Notes: generated by a model from the letters alone, not told the origin. A DNA stretch of 31,382 nucleotides from a virus (IMGVR_UViG_3300022540_000446:1-31382); one strand, 5' to 3'. Counted from the stretch's first letter, positions 5,004 through 25,285 are shown. Numbers and translations are program-made.

Positions 5004-5447
5004 TTAACCTGTAATTGGTGCGCCAGATACTTGAGTAGCGTTTTCAATATCTTGTTGATGTTGTGTTGAGCCATAACCAGCTCCACCCATTTGAGATGCC
5101 ATAGATGCCTGATTGCGTAAGTTCAAATTAGTAGTAGCCGCATAATTAGCAATATTTTGATTTCTATCTGCAATAGAAGCTCTGTACTGTTGTTCCATCA
5201 ATTTGTTTTGATTATAGGAATTGTATGCACCAGCCAGACCAGCCAGACCTTGTGCTCCAAGAGAGAAATTTTTCATTGCTCCTCCCCAGTCAAATCCACC
5301 ACTACCTCCAAGACCAAGACTTTTAGCCATATCTGGATTTTGCTGTAAATTATTTATTCCTTGTACTTCACCTGCTGAACCTAAGTTTCCTGTAAGATCA
5401 AAACCATATTGTCCAGGTTGGGGCAGTGCTAAACTTGTTGCTACCAT
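5004..5447 (-). CDS. Small Gly/Gln-rich internal virion protein (147 aa)
   Basis: The start is ATG behind a strong Shine-Dalgarno (AGAGAGGAAT). The protein has a Gly-rich N-terminal half with the hydrophobic segment LGAQGLAGLAGAYNSYNQNK around residues 65-85. A polar Gln/Asn-rich helix follows and the tail is Gly/Gln-rich. Podovirus gp14-type internal proteins commonly have this short hydrophobic GLAGAYNSYNQ-like stretch followed by a Gln-rich helix. The position, just before two larger helical proteins, supports a role in the ejected core complex. Assignment rests on composition and context. Confidence 0.75.
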   Translation of the reverse strand: MVATSLALPQPGQYGFDLTGNLGSAGEVQGINNLQQNPDMAKSLGLGGSGGFDWGGAMKNFSLGAQGLAGLAGAYNSYNQNKLMEQQYRASIADRNQNIANYAATTNLNLRNQASMASQMGGAGYGSTQHQQDIENATQVSGAPITG

Positions 5448-5458
5448 GATATTCCTCT

Positions 5459-8242
5459 CTATACTACGCCTATCAGTAGACGATTTTTTACAAAGTTACT
5501 AACAAGTGCATCAAAGTCATACACTTGATCAAATTCATACTGTAATTGTATAGCAGGGAATCTAGTCATTTCAACAGAATTCAGTGCTGCCATGAAAGTG
5601 GGATCTACAGTTTGGTCTAAACCTTCTCCAGCTTCTCTTATCTCTTCTAAGCGTGCATCAGCTTCCTCATTTAAATTTTGGAGATCCTGTGCAAGCTCTT
5701 CACCTAGAACAGTATAACTTGCTGCTAGATTATTAGCAAAATTAGTACTGTAAGACAGTAGCTGCTCTGCAGTAGTCATGTTGGTCATGTCTACAACACC
5801 AGTATTTGATAGTACAATCATTGCTACTATAGCCACTAAAGCAGCAAATTCAGCATTACCAGTAAGTTCTGCAACATATATAACAACTTCCATTACTGCA
5901 TAAGATACCAATAAATTATATAAAGCAGTGAGAGGACCAGCCGCTGTAAAAAGTGAAAACACAGTTATAGCTATTAGTACAAATTTAAACAGTGTGGTAA
6001 ATGCTGATGTTTCATACCATTCCAATTCTGTTACCTGGATAGCATAGAAATCAAGCCTAAGCATATGTTGGTATAACTCTAAAAATTCCTCAGGTTTAAA
6101 GTCTTGTACAACAAACCAGGATATAGGAAGAGTAAAGTCATCATCACCGAGAGTATTAAATGCTATATTATGATGTGCTCCATAAGCTATAGCTGCCATA
6201 CCATTCAAATTTTTAATACGTATTTCATCATACTCAGTAGCTGAAATTTGATGCTGTAGCACAAGAGTTTTTACAGTAGTATCCTGAGGAACTCCAAACT
6301 CATCAGGTATAGATTCAATAACCGTAGACACACTATGAGTAAATACTCCTACTTCAGCGATAACGCCTACTATAGCTGAAATGTATTCTTGATCTGTCCA
6401 TACGATTGCGTTATTAATATCCTGCTCTGTAAATGATATTGAGTACTCATTAGTATTTGATGTAAGACCGTTTGTAACTATAAGCTCATAAAAGCTCATA
6501 TATATAACCCTGGAGACAAGATGGTTTGTGCTATTAGTACATACGGCAAAGTTAATATACACATCATCTATTACAGCAATATCAGGGTTTGCCTCTATAT
6601 TATCAATCATATCATCAAGATTTAAAGCTAATTTATTTGTCAACTGTTTTGTAGTTTTGTACTCAGGTGTTGTTTTATCAGAGTTGATACTTACTTTATC
6701 CTTTCTAAGTATTGCTACAGGAAGCATCTCTAAATTGGTTATAAGGCTTAATGTAGGCTCTAAATTAGCATAAGTGAGAGCAGAGTACTCATATAACCAA
6801 AAGAACCACTCAGAAGCAGGAGCAGAAGATTCATGGTATCTTAGAATAAGTGTACGTTCCGCAATGTAATTTGGTCTTGTAATTACCCCAGTAACAATAG
6901 CAGTACCTGGAAGTGGTGTATCTGCAGTACCATCAACTATTGTCACTACTCCAACATAGCTGATATCTACCAGTGCATCAGAACAATTAGATAACTCCAC
7001 ACTAAATTGTTCATTATCATCATCTGCCACATCTGGAGTGATTGGAACAGTAATAGTCTGAACTTCGCCTGCTGTACCTACAAAATTTAAGGTACCTGGA
7101 GTATTATCGTAATCAAGACCTGCAACTGCAGTAATATTAGTAAAGGAATAATCTACTGTAAATGCAGTTGCTGTAGCTTCGGTTAGTGTTACATTTATTA
7201 ATGCGTTGGTATCATTCTCTCCAATTATTACATGAGGAATAGTTAGCATAAGCGCATCATCATCTGTAATAGCGGTAGTTATGCTATTTAATGTATCTAT
7301 TGCAACTTCTTCGAATGCAGCATTTGTATTTGTTATGGAGTCAATAGTTATAATCATATCTCTGACACCATCAACTACAATATTTTCTATTGTAGCGATT
7401 ACTATATCAATAGTATCGGTAGATGCCAGCATTGTTACTGATGCAACTGAAGTATAATCAGTACCATCAATAGCTGTTCCGGTGTAAGCAAAATTTATAT
7501 TTACTGACTCACCTACTGGAACTAACCTATTTGAATGCACTGTGTATGTTACTGAACCACCCTCAATTACACTCTCAATGCCTGTTATCCAAAATATGGC
7601 CAATTCTGCAATTCTTGATATATTTAAGGAATAGTCATTGGTGCCGGAATTAAATACAACACTATCTAAAGAATAATCAGTTCTAACAACACCATGAGGA
7701 TCTGTAAAAGTAAGCGTATTTAGGTATGGAAAGTAAAAATACGGAGTAGCTTGTAAGTAGTACTGAAAATATCTATCAGCATCTGGAAACGTACTATCAG
7801 TAGACAGTACAGTAAAGGTTCCACCTAAATCAGTATTTAATGCTGCTGCTATTGCTACATGATCAGCTGTACCTCCTTTAATTTGCATTTCAGGTAATCC
7901 ATGTGTATATCTGCTTTTACCGTATCGATGATAGCTTCTCATCTGAGCAGTTGCAGTATATATTTCTACCATGTAGTTAGCGAAGAAGGATGTATCAGTT
8001 TTTACGTGTTTAAGTACAGCTCTAACAATAGATTTATGGACTACATCTTCAGTATTATCTCCAAATACTAAAGTAGAAACTTTTTGTACACTTACAACAG
8101 TTTCATCCTCAATACCAAACCATGAGAATATTTCCTCTAATATAGGCATGCATACATAATCCCAAATAATTTGTACAATATCTACTACTGCTTCCCATGC
8201 ATCTTCAATAAAGTCCGTTACTGCAGCTTCTACATCTCCCAC
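5459..8242 (-). CDS. Large virion protein with two Calx-beta domains and a C-terminal hydrophobic region (927 aa)
   Basis: The start is GTG with AGGGGGATAAC immediately upstream, overlapping the previous gene by 13 bases; no in-frame ATG lies nearby. The N-terminus (residues about 5-45) is an amphipathic Trp/Ile/Val-rich helix. Two Calx-beta-type beta-sandwiches follow at about 220-330 and 333-440, recognised by IEGGSVTYTV, GTAIDGTDYT, AGLDYDNTPGTLNF and DDDNEQFSVEL. A mixed alpha/beta region follows, then long hydrophobic segments at about 735-800 (VLIAITVFSLFTAAGP) and an acidic coiled coil at about 835-870. Calx-beta modules bind calcium and occur in surface adhesins. The whole looks like a virion or tail structural protein with inserted adhesive domains and a membrane-interacting part. 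The exact role is not known. Confidence 0.8.
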   Translation of the reverse strand: MGDVEAAVTDFIEDAWEAVVDIVQIIWDYVCMPILEEIFSWFGIEDETVVSVQKVSTLVFGDNTEDVVHKSIVRAVLKHVKTDTSFFANYMVEIYTATAQMRSYHRYGKSRYTHGLPEMQIKGGTADHVAIAAALNTDLGGTFTVLSTDSTFPDADRYFQYYLQATPYFYFPYLNTLTFTDPHGVVRTDYSLDSVVFNSGTNDYSLNISRIAELAIFWITGIESVIEGGSVTYTVHSNRLVPVGESVNINFAYTGTAIDGTDYTSVASVTMLASTDTIDIVIATIENIVVDGVRDMIITIDSITNTNAAFEEVAIDTLNSITTAITDDDALMLTIPHVIIGENDTNALINVTLTEATATAFTVDYSFTNITAVAGLDYDNTPGTLNFVGTAGEVQTITVPITPDVADDDNEQFSVELSNCSDALVDISYVGVVTIVDGTADTPLPGTAIVTGVITRPNYIAERTLILRYHESSAPASEWFFWLYEYSALTYANLEPTLSLITNLEMLPVAILRKDKVSINSDKTTPEYKTTKQLTNKLALNLDDMIDNIEANPDIAVIDDVYINFAVCTNSTNHLVSRVIYMSFYELIVTNGLTSNTNEYSISFTEQDINNAIVWTDQEYISAIVGVIAEVGVFTHSVSTVIESIPDEFGVPQDTTVKTLVLQHQISATEYDEIRIKNLNGMAAIAYGAHHNIAFNTLGDDDFTLPISWFVVQDFKPEEFLELYQHMLRLDFYAIQVTELEWYETSAFTTLFKFVLIAITVFSLFTAAGPLTALYNLLVSYAVMEVVIYVAELTGNAEFAALVAIVAMIVLSNTGVVDMTNMTTAEQLLSYSTNFANNLAASYTVLGEELAQDLQNLNEEADARLEEIREAGEGLDQTVDPTFMAALNSVEMTRFPAIQLQYEFDQVYDFDALVSNFVKNRLLIGVV

Positions 8243-8715
8243 GTTATCCCCCTGGCAGTATGCAATTCATGAATTTTTTCTTTAAGTCTATCAATACGTA
8301 TCATTAATGGATAATTAATATTGGCATGCCTTTTAATAGATGTAAGTGTAAGTAGACTTTTATACTCATTTAGCATTTTACCTGGATGAAGTCTAAATTC
8401 CATAGCAAAAGTATCTTTATCTATTTCCCGGAATACACCTGTAAACAGTGCAATCATTTTCATAGGAACACCTTCACCAAAGAGTGCTATGCCGGTAGCT
8501 CTATGTTTGGTTGTACTCATATAGTAAATAAAACAAGTATCATCAGTCAATGCAAATGCAGTACCTTCAGCAATACATCTACGCATTCTGTTCTGAAAAG
8601 GTATACGGTCAGACTCTATTATATACTTTTCTACACAAGCAAAATGCTTAGAAACATCCTCTTCCGTACAAGATTTTATAAAGTGGTGGTTGCCAATAAG
8701 GTCTGTAGTCTTCAT
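8230..8715 (-). CDS. Unassigned 161-aa protein next to the ketosynthase; possible GNAT-like acyltransferase
   Basis: I place the start at ATG 8715-8713, which overlaps the ketosynthase stop (TGATG); a GTG one codon upstream is possible. The protein has an N-terminal helical part, then a predicted beta-rich core around residues 45-110 (TAFALTDDTCFIYYM, ATGIALFGEGVP, MIALFTGVF). It ends in a basic helical tail. This size and beta-alpha order is compatible with a GNAT fold. Podovirus gp13-type internal proteins and HlyC-type ACP-dependent acyltransferases are of similar size and would suit this position. No acetyl-CoA P-loop (RxxGxG/A) is clear, so the fold is a guess. It lies directly after ACP and ketosynthase genes and before the 927-residue virion protein. 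Confidence 0.7.
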   Translation of the reverse strand: MKTTDLIGNHHFIKSCTEEDVSKHFACVEKYIIESDRIPFQNRMRRCIAEGTAFALTDDTCFIYYMSTTKHRATGIALFGEGVPMKMIALFTGVFREIDKDTFAMEFRLHPGKMLNEYKSLLTLTSIKRHANINYPLMIRIDRLKEKIHELHTARGITWEM

Positions 8716-9545
8716 CACTTATCTAATGTAAAGGCTCCATAGAAGCCACCTAGTCCGTTAGCGGTTACTAACACTTTACCCTTGATTGATGGATCAAATA
8801 GTACCATAGCTGTCTCAAGCAATGCACTAATGCCTTGTGTGTGACCTATACCTGATTTATAGGTTATTGGTGAAGCAATTTTAGCGATTCCTGCTTCAGC
8901 AGCTGTATTTGCCTGAGTACCAGTACCGTGTAACTTTACAAAATCTACTGGGTAATCAGGTATTAAAGTATCGATAACTTCCCGTGAAAACATAAAAGGA
9001 TTACGGTTATACGCATACTTCCATTTGATATCAGAAATACCTTTACCTTTTTGAAGCTTCATATAAATAAATCCGTCACCACAGGTAACAGGTATACGAA
9101 GTTCTTTGAACAGTCTCATCGTATCATTTGTGGTACGTTCTCCACCAATAATGATGACTTCTTCAACATATCCTTCTTTAAGCATCCTATTAGCCTCATA
9201 CAATGCCTGTATACCTGCAGCACAGGTACTGGAGATAATGTCTACCTTACGCAAATACTCCTTACCTTTAAACGTATAGACCCATTCATGAGCAATATAT
9301 GCTGCACCTGACTTTATTATCGGGGAGTAATTTTCTACGTTGGTAGTATTAAGGCCACTTTCTGAAGGAGACATAGAAAAACCATCCAAGTACAAAAATG
9401 CAGTTGGTCTGGTAAGTTCTATATTTAGTTTGGATAGCTTTATAAACTGTAAAACAGAAGATTTATACCGATCAAGTTCAGGTATTGCTATATATCCTTC
9501 TCTTGCTTCTGTTCCGTGGGCATAGACAAAATCGATAATCTGCAT
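8715..9545 (-). CDS. Compact beta-ketoacyl-ACP synthase (ketosynthase, 276 aa)
   Basis: Ketosynthases of the FabB/FabF class condense an acyl group with malonyl-ACP. All catalytic landmarks are visible: Cys108 in ISSTCAAGIQAL (nucleophile), His206 in KLHGTGTQAN, Lys230 and His235 in YKSGIGHTQG, and a glycine loop ANGLGG near residues 262-267 that matches the family NSFGFGG loop. EEVIIIGGER (128-137) fits the conserved strand after the nucleophile helix. At 276 residues it is far shorter than the usual 400 or more: the N-terminus is shortened by about 55 residues relative to FabF Cys163, and the Cys-to-His and His-to-His spacings are also reduced. It overlaps the upstream ACP gene by 58 bases. 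Activity is likely; the natural acyl substrate is unknown. Confidence 0.88.
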   Translation of the reverse strand: MQIIDFVYAHGTEAREGYIAIPELDRYKSSVLQFIKLSKLNIELTRPTAFLYLDGFSMSPSESGLNTTNVENYSPIIKSGAAYIAHEWVYTFKGKEYLRKVDIISSTCAAGIQALYEANRMLKEGYVEEVIIIGGERTTNDTMRLFKELRIPVTCGDGFIYMKLQKGKGISDIKWKYAYNRNPFMFSREVIDTLIPDYPVDFVKLHGTGTQANTAAEAGIAKIASPITYKSGIGHTQGISALLETAMVLFDPSIKGKVLVTANGLGGFYGAFTLDK

Positions 9546-9775
9546 AGTGTAATAAGGTCTCTCATAGTTAAATTGGCAACGTCTAATTTTTCAAAGGCAT
9601 CTTTTTCATCTTCATTTTGAAAGATCTTAAACTCTGCGTCAATAGTTATTAATGCTATTGTAGTGCCCAAGCTATCCAAATTACTGTCCATAAACATCCC
9701 TGTTATTGGAACTGCTTCACCTTTTTCATCAATAATTATGTCATTAATACGATCCAATATTTCAGTTTTATTCAT
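9488..9775 (-). CDS. Acyl carrier protein (95 aa)
   Basis: The start is placed at ATG 9775-9773; a GTG three codons upstream, overlapping the previous stop (GTGA), is the alternative. The product is a small acidic helical protein with the phosphopantetheine site MDSNLDSLGTT, in which the Ser of the DSL motif (Ser35 from this ATG) would carry the 4'-phosphopantetheine arm added by a host or phage transferase. Helix I (KTEILDRINDIII), the DSL-initiated helix II and an acidic helix II-III region follow the ACP pattern. It is slightly longer than E. coli AcpP (78 aa), with a basic Gln/Lys tail. It overlaps the ketosynthase gene by 58 bases, which strongly suggests a functional pair. Confidence 0.85.
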   Translation of the reverse strand: MNKTEILDRINDIIIDEKGEAVPITGMFMDSNLDSLGTTIALITIDAEFKIFQNEDEKDAFEKLDVANLTMRDLITLCRLSILSMPTEQKQEKDI

Positions 9776-9780
9776 AGTTA

Positions 9781-10488
9781 TCACAACGGTAAAGGTGGAG
9801 TATCTATACCTAAATCAATTGCTGGAGCAGAGTTAATAATTTCAGTAACACCAACTTCAGACAGAATATTTTCAACTAAATTATCTATTGCAGTATCTTG
9901 TGCAGCTTCTGGTACATTACCAACCCCGGCTATTGAAAGGTTAACAGCATAGTTCTCAAACATCTGTTTAAGTACTTTCTGCTTAGTATCACTTGCAAAT
10001 CCTAAAGTTTGTGCAGCCATAAGTGTTACTTTTTGAGCAGATTCACTATCCATTCTAGTAGTTTTAGCGATTGTTTCTAAATCTTGTGACTGGAGTAAAT
10101 CTACTTTTTCCTGCGTTTCAATTATTTGTTCAGCATTAATAAGGTTTTCTCGTACTGTTGCAGCTTTAGTAGCTGCAATGTCTTCATATGCTTTTGCTGT
10201 TTGTGCAATAATTAAATCAGTTTCTTCTTGTGCTTTTATTATTTGTTGAGCAAGTAACTCAATTTCCTTACTAGCTTTTTGCTCAGACAAAAGAAAAGTT
10301 AGTGATTGCTGTAAAACAGATTGTAGTGCTCCAAGGTATACTGTGCTGTACTCTACACCTGTAATTCGACCTAATGTAAATTGATCAGTTAAATGAAGGT
10401 CAATAGACTTCATCAAGATATCAAAAACACCTGTACCATCAGTTACATCTGTTTTATTCGTAAGATCTGTAATTGCTATATCAGTCAT
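9781..10488 (-). CDS. Coiled-coil virion structural protein (235 aa)
   Basis: The start is ATG after AAGAGATATTT. The N-terminus contains GVFDILMKSIDLHL and FTLGRITGVEYSTVYLGALQ, a motif I associate with a conserved structural protein of several podophage groups. Residues about 65-185 form a long Ala/Gln/Glu-rich predicted coiled coil. The C-terminus is acidic and ends in PPLPL. It lies between the tail/propeller proteins and the ACP gene, in the structural operon. A tail or internal connector role is plausible. I give no more exact function. Confidence 0.75.
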   Translation of the reverse strand: MTDIAITDLTNKTDVTDGTGVFDILMKSIDLHLTDQFTLGRITGVEYSTVYLGALQSVLQQSLTFLLSEQKASKEIELLAQQIIKAQEETDLIIAQTAKAYEDIAATKAATVRENLINAEQIIETQEKVDLLQSQDLETIAKTTRMDSESAQKVTLMAAQTLGFASDTKQKVLKQMFENYAVNLSIAGVGNVPEAAQDTAIDNLVENILSEVGVTEIINSAPAIDLGIDTPPLPL

Positions 10489-10583
10489 AAATATCTCTTA
10501 AAGTAAGGAACCAGGTATAAATTTTTTGGTGCAGTAGCCGATAATTTCAAAGTAATAGTAAGTAAAGTATCTATTAAATACAT
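10485..10583 (-). CDS. Possible 32-residue mini-ORF between tail protein and coiled-coil protein
   Basis: An ATG five bases after the stop of the propeller protein opens a 32-codon frame (MYLIDTLLTITLKL...) that ends in an ATGA overlap with the next gene. It fills an otherwise empty 99-base gap. It begins MYL, like the two tail proteins upstream (MYLLN), so it could be a small coupled leader or the eroded start of a third copy. No clear Shine-Dalgarno is present and the length is small, so it may not be a gene. Confidence 0.3.
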   Translation of the reverse strand: MYLIDTLLTITLKLSATAPKNLYLVPYFKRYL

Positions 10584-10587
10584 GATA

Positions 10588-11697
10588 TTAAGTTAATTCA
10601 TATTGATATATTAAATCATTTTCAAGACCAAGTATGTACATAAATCTGCCATCCTCAGTAAAAAATAATTCTGTTGGCCATATATCTTGATCTGCTACAC
10701 TAAAGAAATTGCCTGTATAAACAGCAGTAGTTATATCAAAATTAACAGATAGAGTATATTGATGAACAGCACTAGATAAACCAGTTATGTACATCTGTGA
10801 TCCATCAGTACTAAAGAAAACTCCCGTTGGAGTACCTTCCTGAGCAATTACACTAAATAACTCATTAGTGTAGCTTGCAGTACTTAAATCAAAATTAATA
10901 GATAAGTTATATTGGTATACTTCATCATTAGTAGATCCAAGCACATACATTTTTGCTCCGTCAGTACTAAATACCAAACTACTTGGAGAAGAATCAGGAA
11001 TACTAACTGATACACCAGAATAAGTAACTGTACTTATATCAAAATTAACACTTAAATTATATTCATAAACAAAGTCACTCCACCCAGTAATAAATATTTT
11101 TGATCCGTCAGTATTAAATGTTATACCTGATGGCGTTGGATCTTGTGCTTGTACAGAAATTGAGTTACCTGTGTAAATAGCAGTAAATATGTCAAAGTTA
11201 ACAGATAAATCATATTGGTAAATTCTACTATTAGTACTATCTACAACATATACTGATGACCCATCAGTATTAAATGTAATACCCCAAGCATTTGGTGCTT
11301 GAGTAAGTACACTAATAAATTTACCAGTGTAAACAGCTTTAGTTATATCCCATGCATATAACTCATAAAGGTTATCCATAGGTGCAAATTTTTTAGTATA
11401 AATATCATTTTTACTTATAAAAAGTTTAGATGATGAGTATATTGTATTTATGGCTTCTGTGCCGTTTGTAAGTGTTATAATCCATAAACCTAATATTGAA
11501 GCTGTAAAAGTATATGATACAGAACCTTTTGAATTTTCTGTGGGTTGTACATAATTTTCAGCAGTTATAGCATTAGGTATATAATCTGATAAACCTGATG
11601 GTTGTTCTATTTTAATGTCCAAATCAGATAGTAAAATAGTATCACTTGTAACATTTAGTACCCAATTTACTGTAATATCTGTATTTAATAAATACAT
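10588..11697 (-). CDS. Tail fibre/receptor-binding candidate with a five-repeat beta-propeller (369 aa)
   Basis: The start ATG directly abuts the stop of the upstream gene. Residues 1 to about 95 form an N-terminal domain (MYLLNTDITVNWVL, LSDLDIKIEQPSG, GLWIITLTNG) closely similar to that of the next gene upstream. Residues about 110-369 contain five repeats of about 46 residues with the signature GITFNTDGS..Y(V/I)..S...VYQY(D/N)LSVNFD. This is typical of YncE/SMP-30-like or WD-like beta-propeller blades. Five blades is at the low end for a closed propeller. With its neighbour it probably forms tail fibres or spikes attached to the virion through the shared N-terminal domain. Confidence 0.8.
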   Translation of the reverse strand: MYLLNTDITVNWVLNVTSDTILLSDLDIKIEQPSGLSDYIPNAITAENYVQPTENSKGSVSYTFTASILGLWIITLTNGTEAINTIYSSSKLFISKNDIYTKKFAPMDNLYELYAWDITKAVYTGKFISVLTQAPNAWGITFNTDGSSVYVVDSTNSRIYQYDLSVNFDIFTAIYTGNSISVQAQDPTPSGITFNTDGSKIFITGWSDFVYEYNLSVNFDISTVTYSGVSVSIPDSSPSSLVFSTDGAKMYVLGSTNDEVYQYNLSINFDLSTASYTNELFSVIAQEGTPTGVFFSTDGSQMYITGLSSAVHQYTLSVNFDITTAVYTGNFFSVADQDIWPTELFFTEDGRFMYILGLENDLIYQYELT

Positions 11698-13287
11698 TTA
11701 AACTATCCCATTTGTCGATCTACATATTTGACCATTATTTGCTACTGCGATAAAAATTTTATCTTCTTCATCATAATGTACATCATTAATATTCGCTGTT
11801 GGTATAAATCCATTACTTACCTGAATAAATGTATCACCATAATTTGAGGAATAAGCTATTTTTCCATTGTCACCTACAGCCACAAATAATCCGTTTAGTG
11901 CTATTGCTCCTACTACACCATTTACGTTACTTAACCCAAAAGAAGGTACTGAAGCTGCTGCAAAGATTAATAAATTAGCATCAGTAGATCTTATTACCTG
12001 ACCTTCATCACCTACAATCACACAGCGATCAACACTAAGTGCTTTTATCATAGAACCGTCTTGGAAGTACTCAGATCCTGAAGTATATGGAAATGAGTAA
12101 CTTCCATAATTAGTACCATAGCTTCTTCTTAAAGAACTAATACCAGAATGTCGAAAAAGTACATCATTATCAGAACCTAGTGGTGATACAGTCAGTAAAC
12201 CACAATTGTACGAAGTAAGAATATCTGTCCAGGTAACTCCAAAATCTATGCTTTTAGCTGTACCGTGTTGAGGCCAATTAAGTGTCTGTTCGTGAAAAGT
12301 AATCATAAAATCTGTAGACACTGAATAAGTAATAGCTATTATATTTCCTGTTCCTGGAGTACTAGCCCATACAAGAGTACTAAGAACAGTTGTTGTATCA
12401 AGAGTCCAATCAGTACAGTTTACAGATTTTAGTAAAACTCCTACATTTCCTCCTACTATAAATCGTTCATTATCATAGTCATAACCTACACAGTTTAAAT
12501 TCTCTGTAGTACTGGTAGCTCTTTGTACCCATGTAATACCTTTATCCTCAGAGGTAAAAAGCTTTCCTCCATCACCAACAGCAACCCACCATACCTGTAA
12601 ACCTATTTTTCCAGAATGGATGGCATTAATAGATGTAGATTCGAATGGAGAGGTTACTATAGGAATCCAACTAACTGCACTAGTAATAAGACATACTTGA
12701 GTTAACCCTGCAGTTAATACTGCTCCATCATCCATATCTACTACTACTGTTGTATTTCCAGCAGAAGTTGTTCCAAAATCACTAGCAGAAATAGTACCAT
12801 AAAGTGTTTCTCCATTTACTGTAAATGTTAATTTACGAGAAACGCTAAATAAATTTATTACATTTAACCCATCAACTCTAAAAGTTGAAGAGTCTACATA
12901 AACAGGTGTATAGCCAGGACAATACACAGAAGGAACCGTACTGGTACAGGCACAACACTCTGAATATTCAATATCGACAGGATTTACTTCAGTAGAATTA
13001 TTTAACACATACATATCTACTTTTGATAATACTTTGTAGTCTAAGGATGTACCGATAACTAAGTTAATTTTCCACAATCCTTCTATATTTGGTGTAAATA
13101 AATAAGATGCAGATCCAACAGCTACTATTGTTGGAGCTACAAATCTTGCAATATTGATAGGTGAATCAATATAAGTTGAATTGCCTTCTGGATCTATAAG
13201 TATTAAATCCAGATCAGATAGCACTATAGTATTAGGAGTTTTTCCTAATACCCAGGCTATCTCTGTCTCTGCATTTAATAGGTACAT
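11698..13287 (-). CDS. Tail fibre/receptor-binding candidate with BNR (Asp-box) beta-propeller (529 aa)
   Basis: The N-terminal domain (about residues 1-95: MYLLNAETEIAWVL, LSDLDLILIDPEG, GLWKINLVIG) is paralogous to that of the 369-residue protein downstream. A Cys-containing linker (ECCACTSTVPSVYCPG, about 108-124) leads to a small beta-domain. A propeller from about 210 carries Asp-box/BNR signatures (SEDKGITW, SIDFGVTW, SSNYGDTF) and repeated (A/G)VGDxGK/Q strands. BNR repeats occur in sialidases and photosystem-assembly-like propellers; here they are more likely a binding scaffold, and no sialidase active site was identified. The gene precedes its paralog without a gap. Confidence 0.8.
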   Translation of the reverse strand: MYLLNAETEIAWVLGKTPNTIVLSDLDLILIDPEGNSTYIDSPINIARFVAPTIVAVGSASYLFTPNIEGLWKINLVIGTSLDYKVLSKVDMYVLNNSTEVNPVDIEYSECCACTSTVPSVYCPGYTPVYVDSSTFRVDGLNVINLFSVSRKLTFTVNGETLYGTISASDFGTTSAGNTTVVVDMDDGAVLTAGLTQVCLITSAVSWIPIVTSPFESTSINAIHSGKIGLQVWWVAVGDGGKLFTSEDKGITWVQRATSTTENLNCVGYDYDNERFIVGGNVGVLLKSVNCTDWTLDTTTVLSTLVWASTPGTGNIIAITYSVSTDFMITFHEQTLNWPQHGTAKSIDFGVTWTDILTSYNCGLLTVSPLGSDNDVLFRHSGISSLRRSYGTNYGSYSFPYTSGSEYFQDGSMIKALSVDRCVIVGDEGQVIRSTDANLLIFAAASVPSFGLSNVNGVVGAIALNGLFVAVGDNGKIAYSSNYGDTFIQVSNGFIPTANINDVHYDEEDKIFIAVANNGQICRSTNGIV

Positions 13288-24882: not shown

Positions 24883-24956
24883 TGGAAGCACTGTATGGAA
24901 TCGAACCATAGTTGTCTGGGTCAAATCCAGATGTCTTGCCACTAGACGACAATGCT
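24883..24956 (-). tRNA. tRNA-Gln (TTG)
   Basis: Read on the minus strand: acceptor AGCATTG pairs with CAGTGCT (one G-U). The anticodon stem TCTGG/CCAGA has loop ATTTGAC (anticodon TTG), the T-arm is TATGGTTCGATTCCATA, and CCA is encoded. The discriminator base is T, not the G usual for glutamine tRNA. Confidence 0.88.
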
Positions 24957-24963
24957 GTAAAAT

Positions 24964-25038
24964 TGGTATCCCAGGCGAGAATCGAACTCGCTATCTCAGC
25001 GTGAAAGGCTGATGACTTGACCAGTTGTCCACTGGGAT
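24964..25038 (-). tRNA. tRNA-Glu (TTC)
   Basis: Acceptor ATCCCAG/CTGGGAT is fully paired. The anticodon stem TCAGC/GCTGA has loop CTTTCAC (anticodon TTC), the T-arm is GCGAGTTCGATTCTCGC, and discriminator A and encoded CCA are present. All parts are regular. Confidence 0.9.
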
Positions 25039-25043
25039 ATAGT

Positions 25044-25119
25044 TGGTCGGAGAGGTCAGATTCGAACTGACGTATACCGGCATCCAAGACCGGACGATAA
25101 CCACTTTCGTTACACTCCG
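25044..25119 (-). tRNA. tRNA-Pro (TGG)
   Basis: Acceptor CGGAGTG/CTCTCCG starts with the C1-G72 pair typical of proline tRNA and has one U-U mismatch (position 6). The anticodon loop CTTGGAT gives TGG, the T-arm is GTCAGTTCGAATCTGAC, and A73 and encoded CCA are present. Confidence 0.88.
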
Positions 25120-25124
25120 TAATT

Positions 25125-25200
25125 TGGCTGGTATGACAGGCATCGAACCTGTGCGCTTCTGATTAACAGTCAGATGCTCTACCTACTAAGCTACATACCA
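25125..25200 (-). tRNA. tRNA-Asn (GTT)
   Basis: Acceptor TGGTATG/CATACCA is fully paired. The anticodon stem-loop has GTT in CTGTTAA, the T-arm is ACAGGTTCGATGCCTGT, and discriminator G and encoded CCA are present, as usual for asparagine tRNA. Confidence 0.9.
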
Positions 25201-25214
25201 AAAATTCTATTAGG

Positions 25215-25285
25215 GGTGACTACTGAGAATTGAACTCAGGTACAGTGAGTCACAGTCACATGCTTTACCATTAAGCTATAGTCAC
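25215..25285 (-). tRNA. tRNA-His (GTG), without encoded CCA
   Basis: Acceptor GTGACTA/TAGTCAC is paired. The anticodon loop CTGTGAC gives GTG and the T-arm is CTGAGTTCAATTCTCAG. The discriminator is C as expected for histidine. However, the base before position 1 is T rather than the G(-1) that histidyl-tRNA synthetase reads, and the 3' end continues CCT, so CCA is not encoded. The variable loop is short and one anticodon-stem pair is U-U. Confidence 0.8.

What the first reader, a model, noticed from the sequence alone, without database searches (positions are those of the whole stretch)
8230..9775. Acyl carrier protein and ketosynthase cassette inside the virion structural operon
Two overlapping genes encode a complete ACP (DSL serine) and a ketosynthase with Cys108, His206 and His235 intact. 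They lie between a coiled-coil virion protein and the ejected-protein genes, not among metabolic genes. Late co-expression with structural proteins suggests acyl chains are made or loaded for a virion or ejected protein, or for remodelling host membrane at assembly. I know of no such pair in N4 or T7.
Basis: partly seen in the sequence, partly recalled or inferred. Interest (0 to 1): 0.9.

Follow-up and report, generated by a model that had tools for sequence, protein, structure and literature searches.

The report
Phage tail-plug acylation cassette (inferred)
Between the genes for its tail tube and tail plug, this N4-like virus of bacteria carries its own fatty-acid carrier protein, a chain-building enzyme and a transferase-like protein, and the plug of every such phage examined has an extra membrane-loving tip, which suggests that these viruses attach a fat to their own tail, something I found described for no phage.

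Summary
The ACP and ketosynthase (KS) are real. The ACP keeps the DSL serine; the KS keeps Cys108, His206 and His235, plus the KAS-type Lys230 and Glu244, and the homologous sites are invariant in 43 KS of a second phage lineage. The order tube-ACP-KS-X-plug recurs in 8 N4-like contigs (one cut before X). Two Alteromonas phages keep ACP+X without KS. An unrelated podovirus lineage carries ACP-KS-GNAT (Y) in ~45 contigs, again just before a long virion-type gene. Plugs of all 9 block-bearing N4-like phages carry a ~45-aa acidic amphipathic N-terminal extension, absent from 11 relatives lacking the block. The protein after Y starts with a related segment (hhalign E 1e-6; 0/400 shuffles as good). 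Best explanation (about 50%): X/Y moves an acyl chain from the phage ACP to this tag, making a lipidated plug that helps seal the tail or enter the host envelope. Families and synteny are shown; acylation and target are inferred. I found the block described nowhere.

The parts
9781..10488 (-). N4 gp54-like tail tube protein (235 aa)
   Evidence: phrog_2050 E 2.5e-35; N4 gp54 is phrog_2050 and is the tail tube (PMC12633501)
9488..9784 (-). Acyl carrier protein (98 aa from GTG 9784; ATG at 9775 better supported by relatives)
   Evidence: Profile vs PDB ACPs E 6e-6; DSL invariant in 10 N4-like members
9671..9673 (-). ACP Ser38 codon, presumed phosphopantetheine attachment site
   Evidence: Invariant D-S in alignments
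8715..9545 (-). Compact FabB/F-type ketosynthase (276 aa)
   Evidence: Profile vs PDB KS E 1.6e-10; catalytic residues aligned; invariant
9222..9224 (-). KS Cys108 codon (nucleophile)
   Evidence: Invariant in N4-like KS; homologous Cys 42/42 in the second lineage
8841..8930 (-). KS catalytic stretch His206 ... Lys230 ... His235
8230..8718 (-). X: GNAT-fold protein (162 aa), candidate ACP-dependent acyltransferase
   Evidence: AlphaFold2 pLDDT 82, pTM 0.79; Foldseek top hits GNAT; VIA Z 10.5 with 136 residues at 3.1 A
8105..8242 (-). N-terminal acidic amphipathic extension ('tag', about 46 aa) of the tail plug, candidate acylation site
   Evidence: 9/9 block-bearing vs 0/11 block-free Schitoviridae plugs; related to the N-terminus after Y in the second lineage
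5459..8242 (-). N4 gp53-like tail plug (927 aa, GTG start) with internal Calx-beta domain
   Evidence: phrog_2220 E 2.4e-46; N4 gp53 is the same PHROG; Calx-beta

Best explanation
A virion-protein acylation cassette. (1) The host phosphopantetheinyl transferase converts the phage ACP to its holo form on Ser38 (inferred). (2) The phage KS elongates or fixes the length of an acyl chain on that ACP, with host reductases and dehydratase completing each cycle; some relatives lack the KS and would take a host-made acyl group (catalytic residues shown, reaction inferred). (3) The GNAT-fold protein X transfers the acyl group from the ACP to the N-terminal amphipathic extension of the next-encoded protein, the tail plug, perhaps to its Gly/Ser alpha-amine (GNAT fold predicted; transfer and site inferred). 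(4) The acylated amphipathic segment at the tail tip helps cork the tube or, when the plug is displaced on receptor binding, anchors it in the host outer membrane (inferred from the position of the N4 plug).
For: ACP and KS families with intact, invariant residues and dN/dS about 0.06. X predicted as GNAT with good confidence. Order tube-ACP-KS-X-plug in 8 distinct N4-like contigs, one truncated before X; ACP+X without KS at the same spot in PT11-V19 and R22Y, whose whole genomes have no KS match. Second, unrelated lineage: ACP-KS-Y in 48-49 of 52 loci, with Y also GNAT (pLDDT 90.8; Z 12.3 HP0935, 11.8 RimI), directly before a long virion-type gene. Plug extension present in 9/9 block-bearing and 0/11 block-free Schitoviridae; the latter lack X and ACP matches genome-wide. 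Tags of the two lineages are related: hhalign probability 90.5, E 1.4e-6, score 32.3, against a best of 23.2 in 400 column shuffles; reciprocal HMM hits at 6.6e-6 and 3.5e-6 among 2752 ORFs, with no hit at any block-free plug N-terminus. X and Y show no conserved CoA-binding [RQ]xxGx[GA] motif, which fits a donor other than CoA. The N4 plug has a hydrophobic knot corking the tube base.
Against: No biochemistry, no virion mass spectrometry and no visible acyl group. X and Y show no detectable sequence similarity to each other or to any Pfam family. X catalytic residues unknown; Y has no invariant His. Three Y loci lack ACP and KS but keep the tag, so a phage ACP is not always needed. The N4-like block carriers may be one clade, so the 9/9 vs 0/11 contrast is not 20 independent events. 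Position 2 is Gly in most block-free plugs too, so the N-terminal Gly/Ser is not specific evidence.
Confidence: 0.5

Rival explanations
1. Acyl-ACP works as an assembly chaperone: ACP with X (not necessarily catalytic) shields the hydrophobic amphipathic plug tip until it docks in the tube, as mitochondrial acyl-ACP stabilises LYR proteins, and the KS sets the chain length. Nothing is covalently acylated.
For: ACP+X retained without KS in two isolates; T7 gp13, at the equivalent place, is called a probable scaffold protein in Pfam; tag co-occurs with X/Y.
Against: A chaperone role does not explain a GNAT fold in both lineages nor a catalytically conserved KS.
Confidence: 0.2
2. Metabolic block: ACP, KS and GNAT make an acylated small molecule or shift host fatty-acid flux or membrane composition during infection; its place among tail genes is incidental.
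For: R22Y's ACP was interpreted this way (PMC11705849); acyl-ACP-using GNAT-like synthases of small molecules exist (own knowledge).
Against: Same position beside tail genes in two unrelated lineages; co-occurring tag on the next protein; no accompanying FabG/FabZ/FabD-type genes seen among the neighbours and no PPTase in nine records.
Confidence: 0.15
3. X acylates a different virion protein (tail tube, gp52 pore or another ejection protein), or an internal Lys/Cys/Ser rather than the plug N-terminus.
For: GNAT-like proteins precede internal virion proteins in T7-like phages (PMC6775973; ZP6 and T7 maps); ejection proteins must enter membranes.
Against: The tag is the only co-varying feature found, and it lies on the next-encoded protein in both lineages.
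Confidence: 0.15

Closest known systems
RTX toxin-activating acyltransferases (HlyC/ApxC) and the CdiC/CdiA system
   Same: GNAT-type fold (HlyC/ApxC, own knowledge); acyl donor is acyl-ACP; gene lies directly upstream of its protein substrate; the acyl group promotes membrane action.
   Different: The phage block brings its own ACP and often its own KS; no sequence similarity detected; proposed target is a phage tail plug with an N-terminal tag, not a secreted toxin.
T7 gp13 (PF11090) and GNAT genes beside internal virion proteins (cobavirus pc40)
   Same: Small GNAT-like gene just before internal/ejection protein genes of podoviruses.
   Different: No ACP or KS beside them in the maps seen; T7 gp13 has a CoA-type RxxGxA motif, X/Y do not; X and Y do not match PF11090.
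Acyl carrier protein of Alteromonas phage R22Y reported as an auxiliary metabolic gene (PMC11705849)
   Same: Same ACP family at the same locus.
   Different: Published role is host fatty-acid metabolism; the passages read do not mention the GNAT neighbour, the KS of relatives or the plug tag.
FabB/FabF-type (KAS I/II) ketosynthases
   Same: Cys-His-Lys-His-Glu catalytic set conserved.
   Different: 276 aa instead of about 410; shorter between Cys and the first His, and shorter at both ends.
N4 tail plug gp53
   Same: Same protein family (phrog_2220).
   Different: N4 and ten other Schitoviridae lack the N-terminal extension and the block.

Membership tests
KAS I/II-type ketoacyl synthase | Cys-His-Lys-His-Glu catalytic set (FabB C163/H298/K328/H333/E342, own knowledge) | tested here: met
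   C108, H206, K230, H235, E244 invariant; homologous sites invariant in the second lineage; Cys and His motifs align to PDB synthases
KAS I/II-type ketoacyl synthase | Significant profile similarity to known synthases | tested here: met
   E 1.6e-10 to 9s5h with A8; single sequence below Pfam cut-off
KAS I/II-type ketoacyl synthase | Condensing activity on ACP substrates | not testable with these tools
   Needs biochemistry
Acyl carrier protein (PP-binding) | DSL serine in an ACP-like sequence | tested here: met
   Invariant DSL; profile vs PDB ACP E 6e-6
Acyl carrier protein (PP-binding) | 4'-phosphopantetheinylated in vivo | not testable with these tools
   No PPTase (PF01648) in nine relatives' records; host enzyme presumed
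GNAT superfamily (X) | GNAT fold | tested here: met
   Predicted model: Foldseek E 6e-4 and VIA Z 10.5, all leading hits GNAT; prediction only
GNAT superfamily (X) | [RQ]xxGx[GA] CoA pyrophosphate-binding motif | tested here: not met
   Absent or not conserved in 9 X and 39 Y; this is expected of ACP-dependent GNAT-like enzymes
HlyC/ApxC toxin-activating acyltransferase | Catalytic His in the first helix plus Asp, acyl-ACP donor | tested here: inconclusive
   X has invariant D21 and H25 in helix 1, but no Pfam match and no HlyC/ApxC row in the fold search; equivalence not shown
T7 gp13 (PF11090) | Profile match | tested here: not met
   T7 gp13 matches at 1e-47, X and Y do not
N4 gp53 tail plug (phrog_2220) | Profile match and synteny between tail tube and gp52/51/50 region | tested here: met
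   E 2.4e-46 over residues 464-884, same PHROG as N4 gp53; same order

The most novel reading that the evidence does not exclude
Two unrelated groups of short-tailed phages carry a mobile acylation module (ACP, KS, GNAT acyltransferase and an N-terminal substrate tag) that lipidates a virion protein, the tail plug in N4-like phages, during assembly: a phage counterpart of toxin acylation or N-myristoylation.
Probability: 0.45. Interest if true: 0.93.

Novelty: categorically new. Interest (0 to 1): 0.87.

Why it matters
Fatty-acylated virion proteins are known in animal viruses, but I know of no tailed phage with dedicated acylation machinery and found none in the literature searched. If true, it gives short-tailed phages a chemical way to make the tail tip membrane-active, bears on how N4-like phages gate and breach the outer membrane, and shows that some phage 'metabolic' ACP genes are virion-maturation genes. 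R22Y and PT11-V19 are cultured isolates carrying ACP and X, so one mass-spectrometry experiment could test it.

Tried and rejected
Single-protein back-translation scans of viral contigs with the window's KS, X, tube or PT11 ACP found nothing; alignments did. X and Y are not detectably related in sequence, and X gives no PDB sequence match. HlyC/ApxC did not appear among the listed fold matches; this excludes nothing, and toxin-system proteins were not fetched as controls. Residue 2 = Gly/Ser downstream of Y (38 of 42) looked like an acylation signal, but Gly2 also prevails in block-free plugs, so it is not used as evidence. Apparent jumbo-phage (Serratia 2050HW) and marine-virus hits to tag or Y were checked: the first lies inside an ORF, the second is a weak partial hit. 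KS hits in Listeria/Enterococcus/Staphylococcus 'phage' records look like host-derived contigs and were not used. A prophage search by Y found only one betaproteobacterial MAG contig. Metabolic-gene reading judged weaker (see rivals).

Full report
What is there. On the minus strand, in order of transcription: gp54-like tail tube (9781-10488), ACP (9488-9784), ketosynthase (8715-9545), X (8230-8718), gp53-like tail plug (5459-8242), a gene weakly like N4 gp52 (5004-5447) and further large genes. Tube, ACP, KS, X and plug genes each overlap the next. The ACP may start at the ATG at 9775, as relatives align there. N4 itself has gp54 followed directly by gp53. A recent N4 structure paper assigns gp54 to the tail tube, gp53 to the tail plug and gp52-gp50 to the ejected proteins (PMC12633501). 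So the block sits between tube and plug.

ACP and KS are real. Single-sequence matches are sub-threshold, which would leave doubt, but profiles from phage relatives hit PDB ketosynthases at 1.6e-10 and PDB ACPs at 6e-6. The KS keeps the complete KAS I/II set: Cys108, His206, Lys230, His235, Glu244, invariant in eight N4-like sequences, with the homologous residues invariant in 42-43 sequences of a second lineage. It is compact: 276 aa against about 410 for FabF. dN/dS is about 0.06 for KS and ACP in the second lineage. These are selected enzymes, not relics.

The third gene. X has no Pfam match. An AlphaFold2 model from seven sequences (pLDDT 82, pTM 0.79) has GNAT topology; Foldseek's leading PDB matches are GNATs, and VIA-align gives Z 10.5 (3.1 A over 136 residues) with 2pc1, 10.3 with Ard1 and 9.6 with RimI. 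X has no conserved CoA-pyrophosphate motif.

Distribution in N4-like phages. Scans with alignments found the same order, tube-ACP-KS-X-plug, in IMG/VR contigs L010/L011, L006/L019, L012, L014, L015 and L016-18, plus L013, which ends inside the KS. Alteromonas phages PT11-V19 and R22Y have ACP and X there but no KS between them and no KS match elsewhere in their genomes. The R22Y authors reported the ACP as an auxiliary metabolic gene for host fatty-acid metabolism (PMC11705849).

A second lineage. Podovirus-like contigs with a P22 gp10-type stabilisation protein, including MW202545, carry ACP-KS-Y followed by a long gene and, in MW202545, by a transglycosylase gene. Of 52 Y loci, 49 have the KS and 48 the ACP; L035/L036 and L064 have Y without the pair. 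Y is predicted with high confidence (pLDDT 90.8) and is also a GNAT (Z 12.3 HP0935, 11.8 RimI). X and Y are not detectably related in sequence, so either they diverged far or two GNATs were recruited.

The tag. Aligning plugs showed that all nine block-bearing N4-like plugs carry about 45 extra N-terminal residues, acidic and amphipathic, absent from eleven block-free Schitoviridae. X and ACP profiles find nothing in those eleven genomes; the KS profile also finds nothing, though that search had no positive control. The protein encoded right after Y starts with M[GS]AVxxAVxDV and continues with a similar pattern. The two tag alignments match by hhalign from residue 1 (probability 90.5, E 1.4e-6, score 32.3). 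Two hundred column shuffles reached at most 15.6 and two hundred that preserve the hydrophobic pattern at most 23.2. Tag HMMs cross-hit between lineages at 6.6e-6 and 3.5e-6 among 2752 ORFs and find no block-free plug N-terminus. Against named phages, the tag finds only R22Y and PT11-V19 convincingly. This co-occurrence of tag and GNAT in two different protein contexts is the main reason to see the tag as the substrate.

Mechanism. Shown: families, residues, synteny, co-occurrence. Inferred: loading of ACP by a host transferase (no PPTase in nine relatives' records), chain elongation by the KS, transfer by X/Y to the tag, and the role of the acylated tip. In N4, plug residues 29-56 and 670-716 form a hydrophobic knot corking the tube; an N-terminal acylated amphipathic segment would lie near that site, where it could strengthen the seal or engage the outer membrane on release. 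The three Y loci without ACP/KS, and the two N4-like phages without KS, fit a core of transferase plus tag with a donor that the host can also supply.

Limits. The structures are predictions; the N4-like carriers may be one clade; no acyl group has been observed; the modified residue is unknown; the long protein after Y in the second lineage is only presumed to be a virion protein. The literature search covers open-licence papers only.

Noticed in passing
L003 (MW202545) 8768-11929: The two proteins after Y in this phage are strikingly Cys-rich, one with a CCSCCCSCCC-type tail that led to an automatic 'coronavirus S2 glycoprotein' label; L060, L062, L066 and L067 have Cys at regular spacing in the N-terminal tag. 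S-acylation is conceivable.
   Followed up: no
L004, L069-L078 plug N-termini: Most block-free Schitoviridae plugs start with MG, often MGLFS-type sequences followed by basic residues, resembling a eukaryotic N-myristoylation consensus (N4 gp53: MGLFSSKTK).
   Followed up: no
L035, L036, L064: Y and the tag are present but ACP and KS are both missing, so the donor pair is lost or gained as a unit.
   Followed up: partly
window 5459-8242 (plug residues ~332-422): A Calx-beta domain region lies in the plug; the corresponding stretch is absent from the shorter PT11-V19 plug (695 aa).
   Followed up: partly
window 10588-13287: Two proteins with beta-propeller-like matches (SGL/lactonase, BNR repeats) are inserted between the gene after the capsid gene and the tail tube; N4 has none there.
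   Followed up: no
L069 2417-2917 (Vibrio phage SBP1): A putative HNH homing endonuclease on the opposite strand lies between gp54 and gp53, the same gap that holds the block in other phages.
   Followed up: no
window 24883-25285: Cluster of five tRNA genes (Gln, Glu, Pro, Asn, His).
   Followed up: no
L082: A betaproteobacterial MAG contig carries the C-terminal part of a Y gene; probably phage sequence binned with a bacterium.
   Followed up: no
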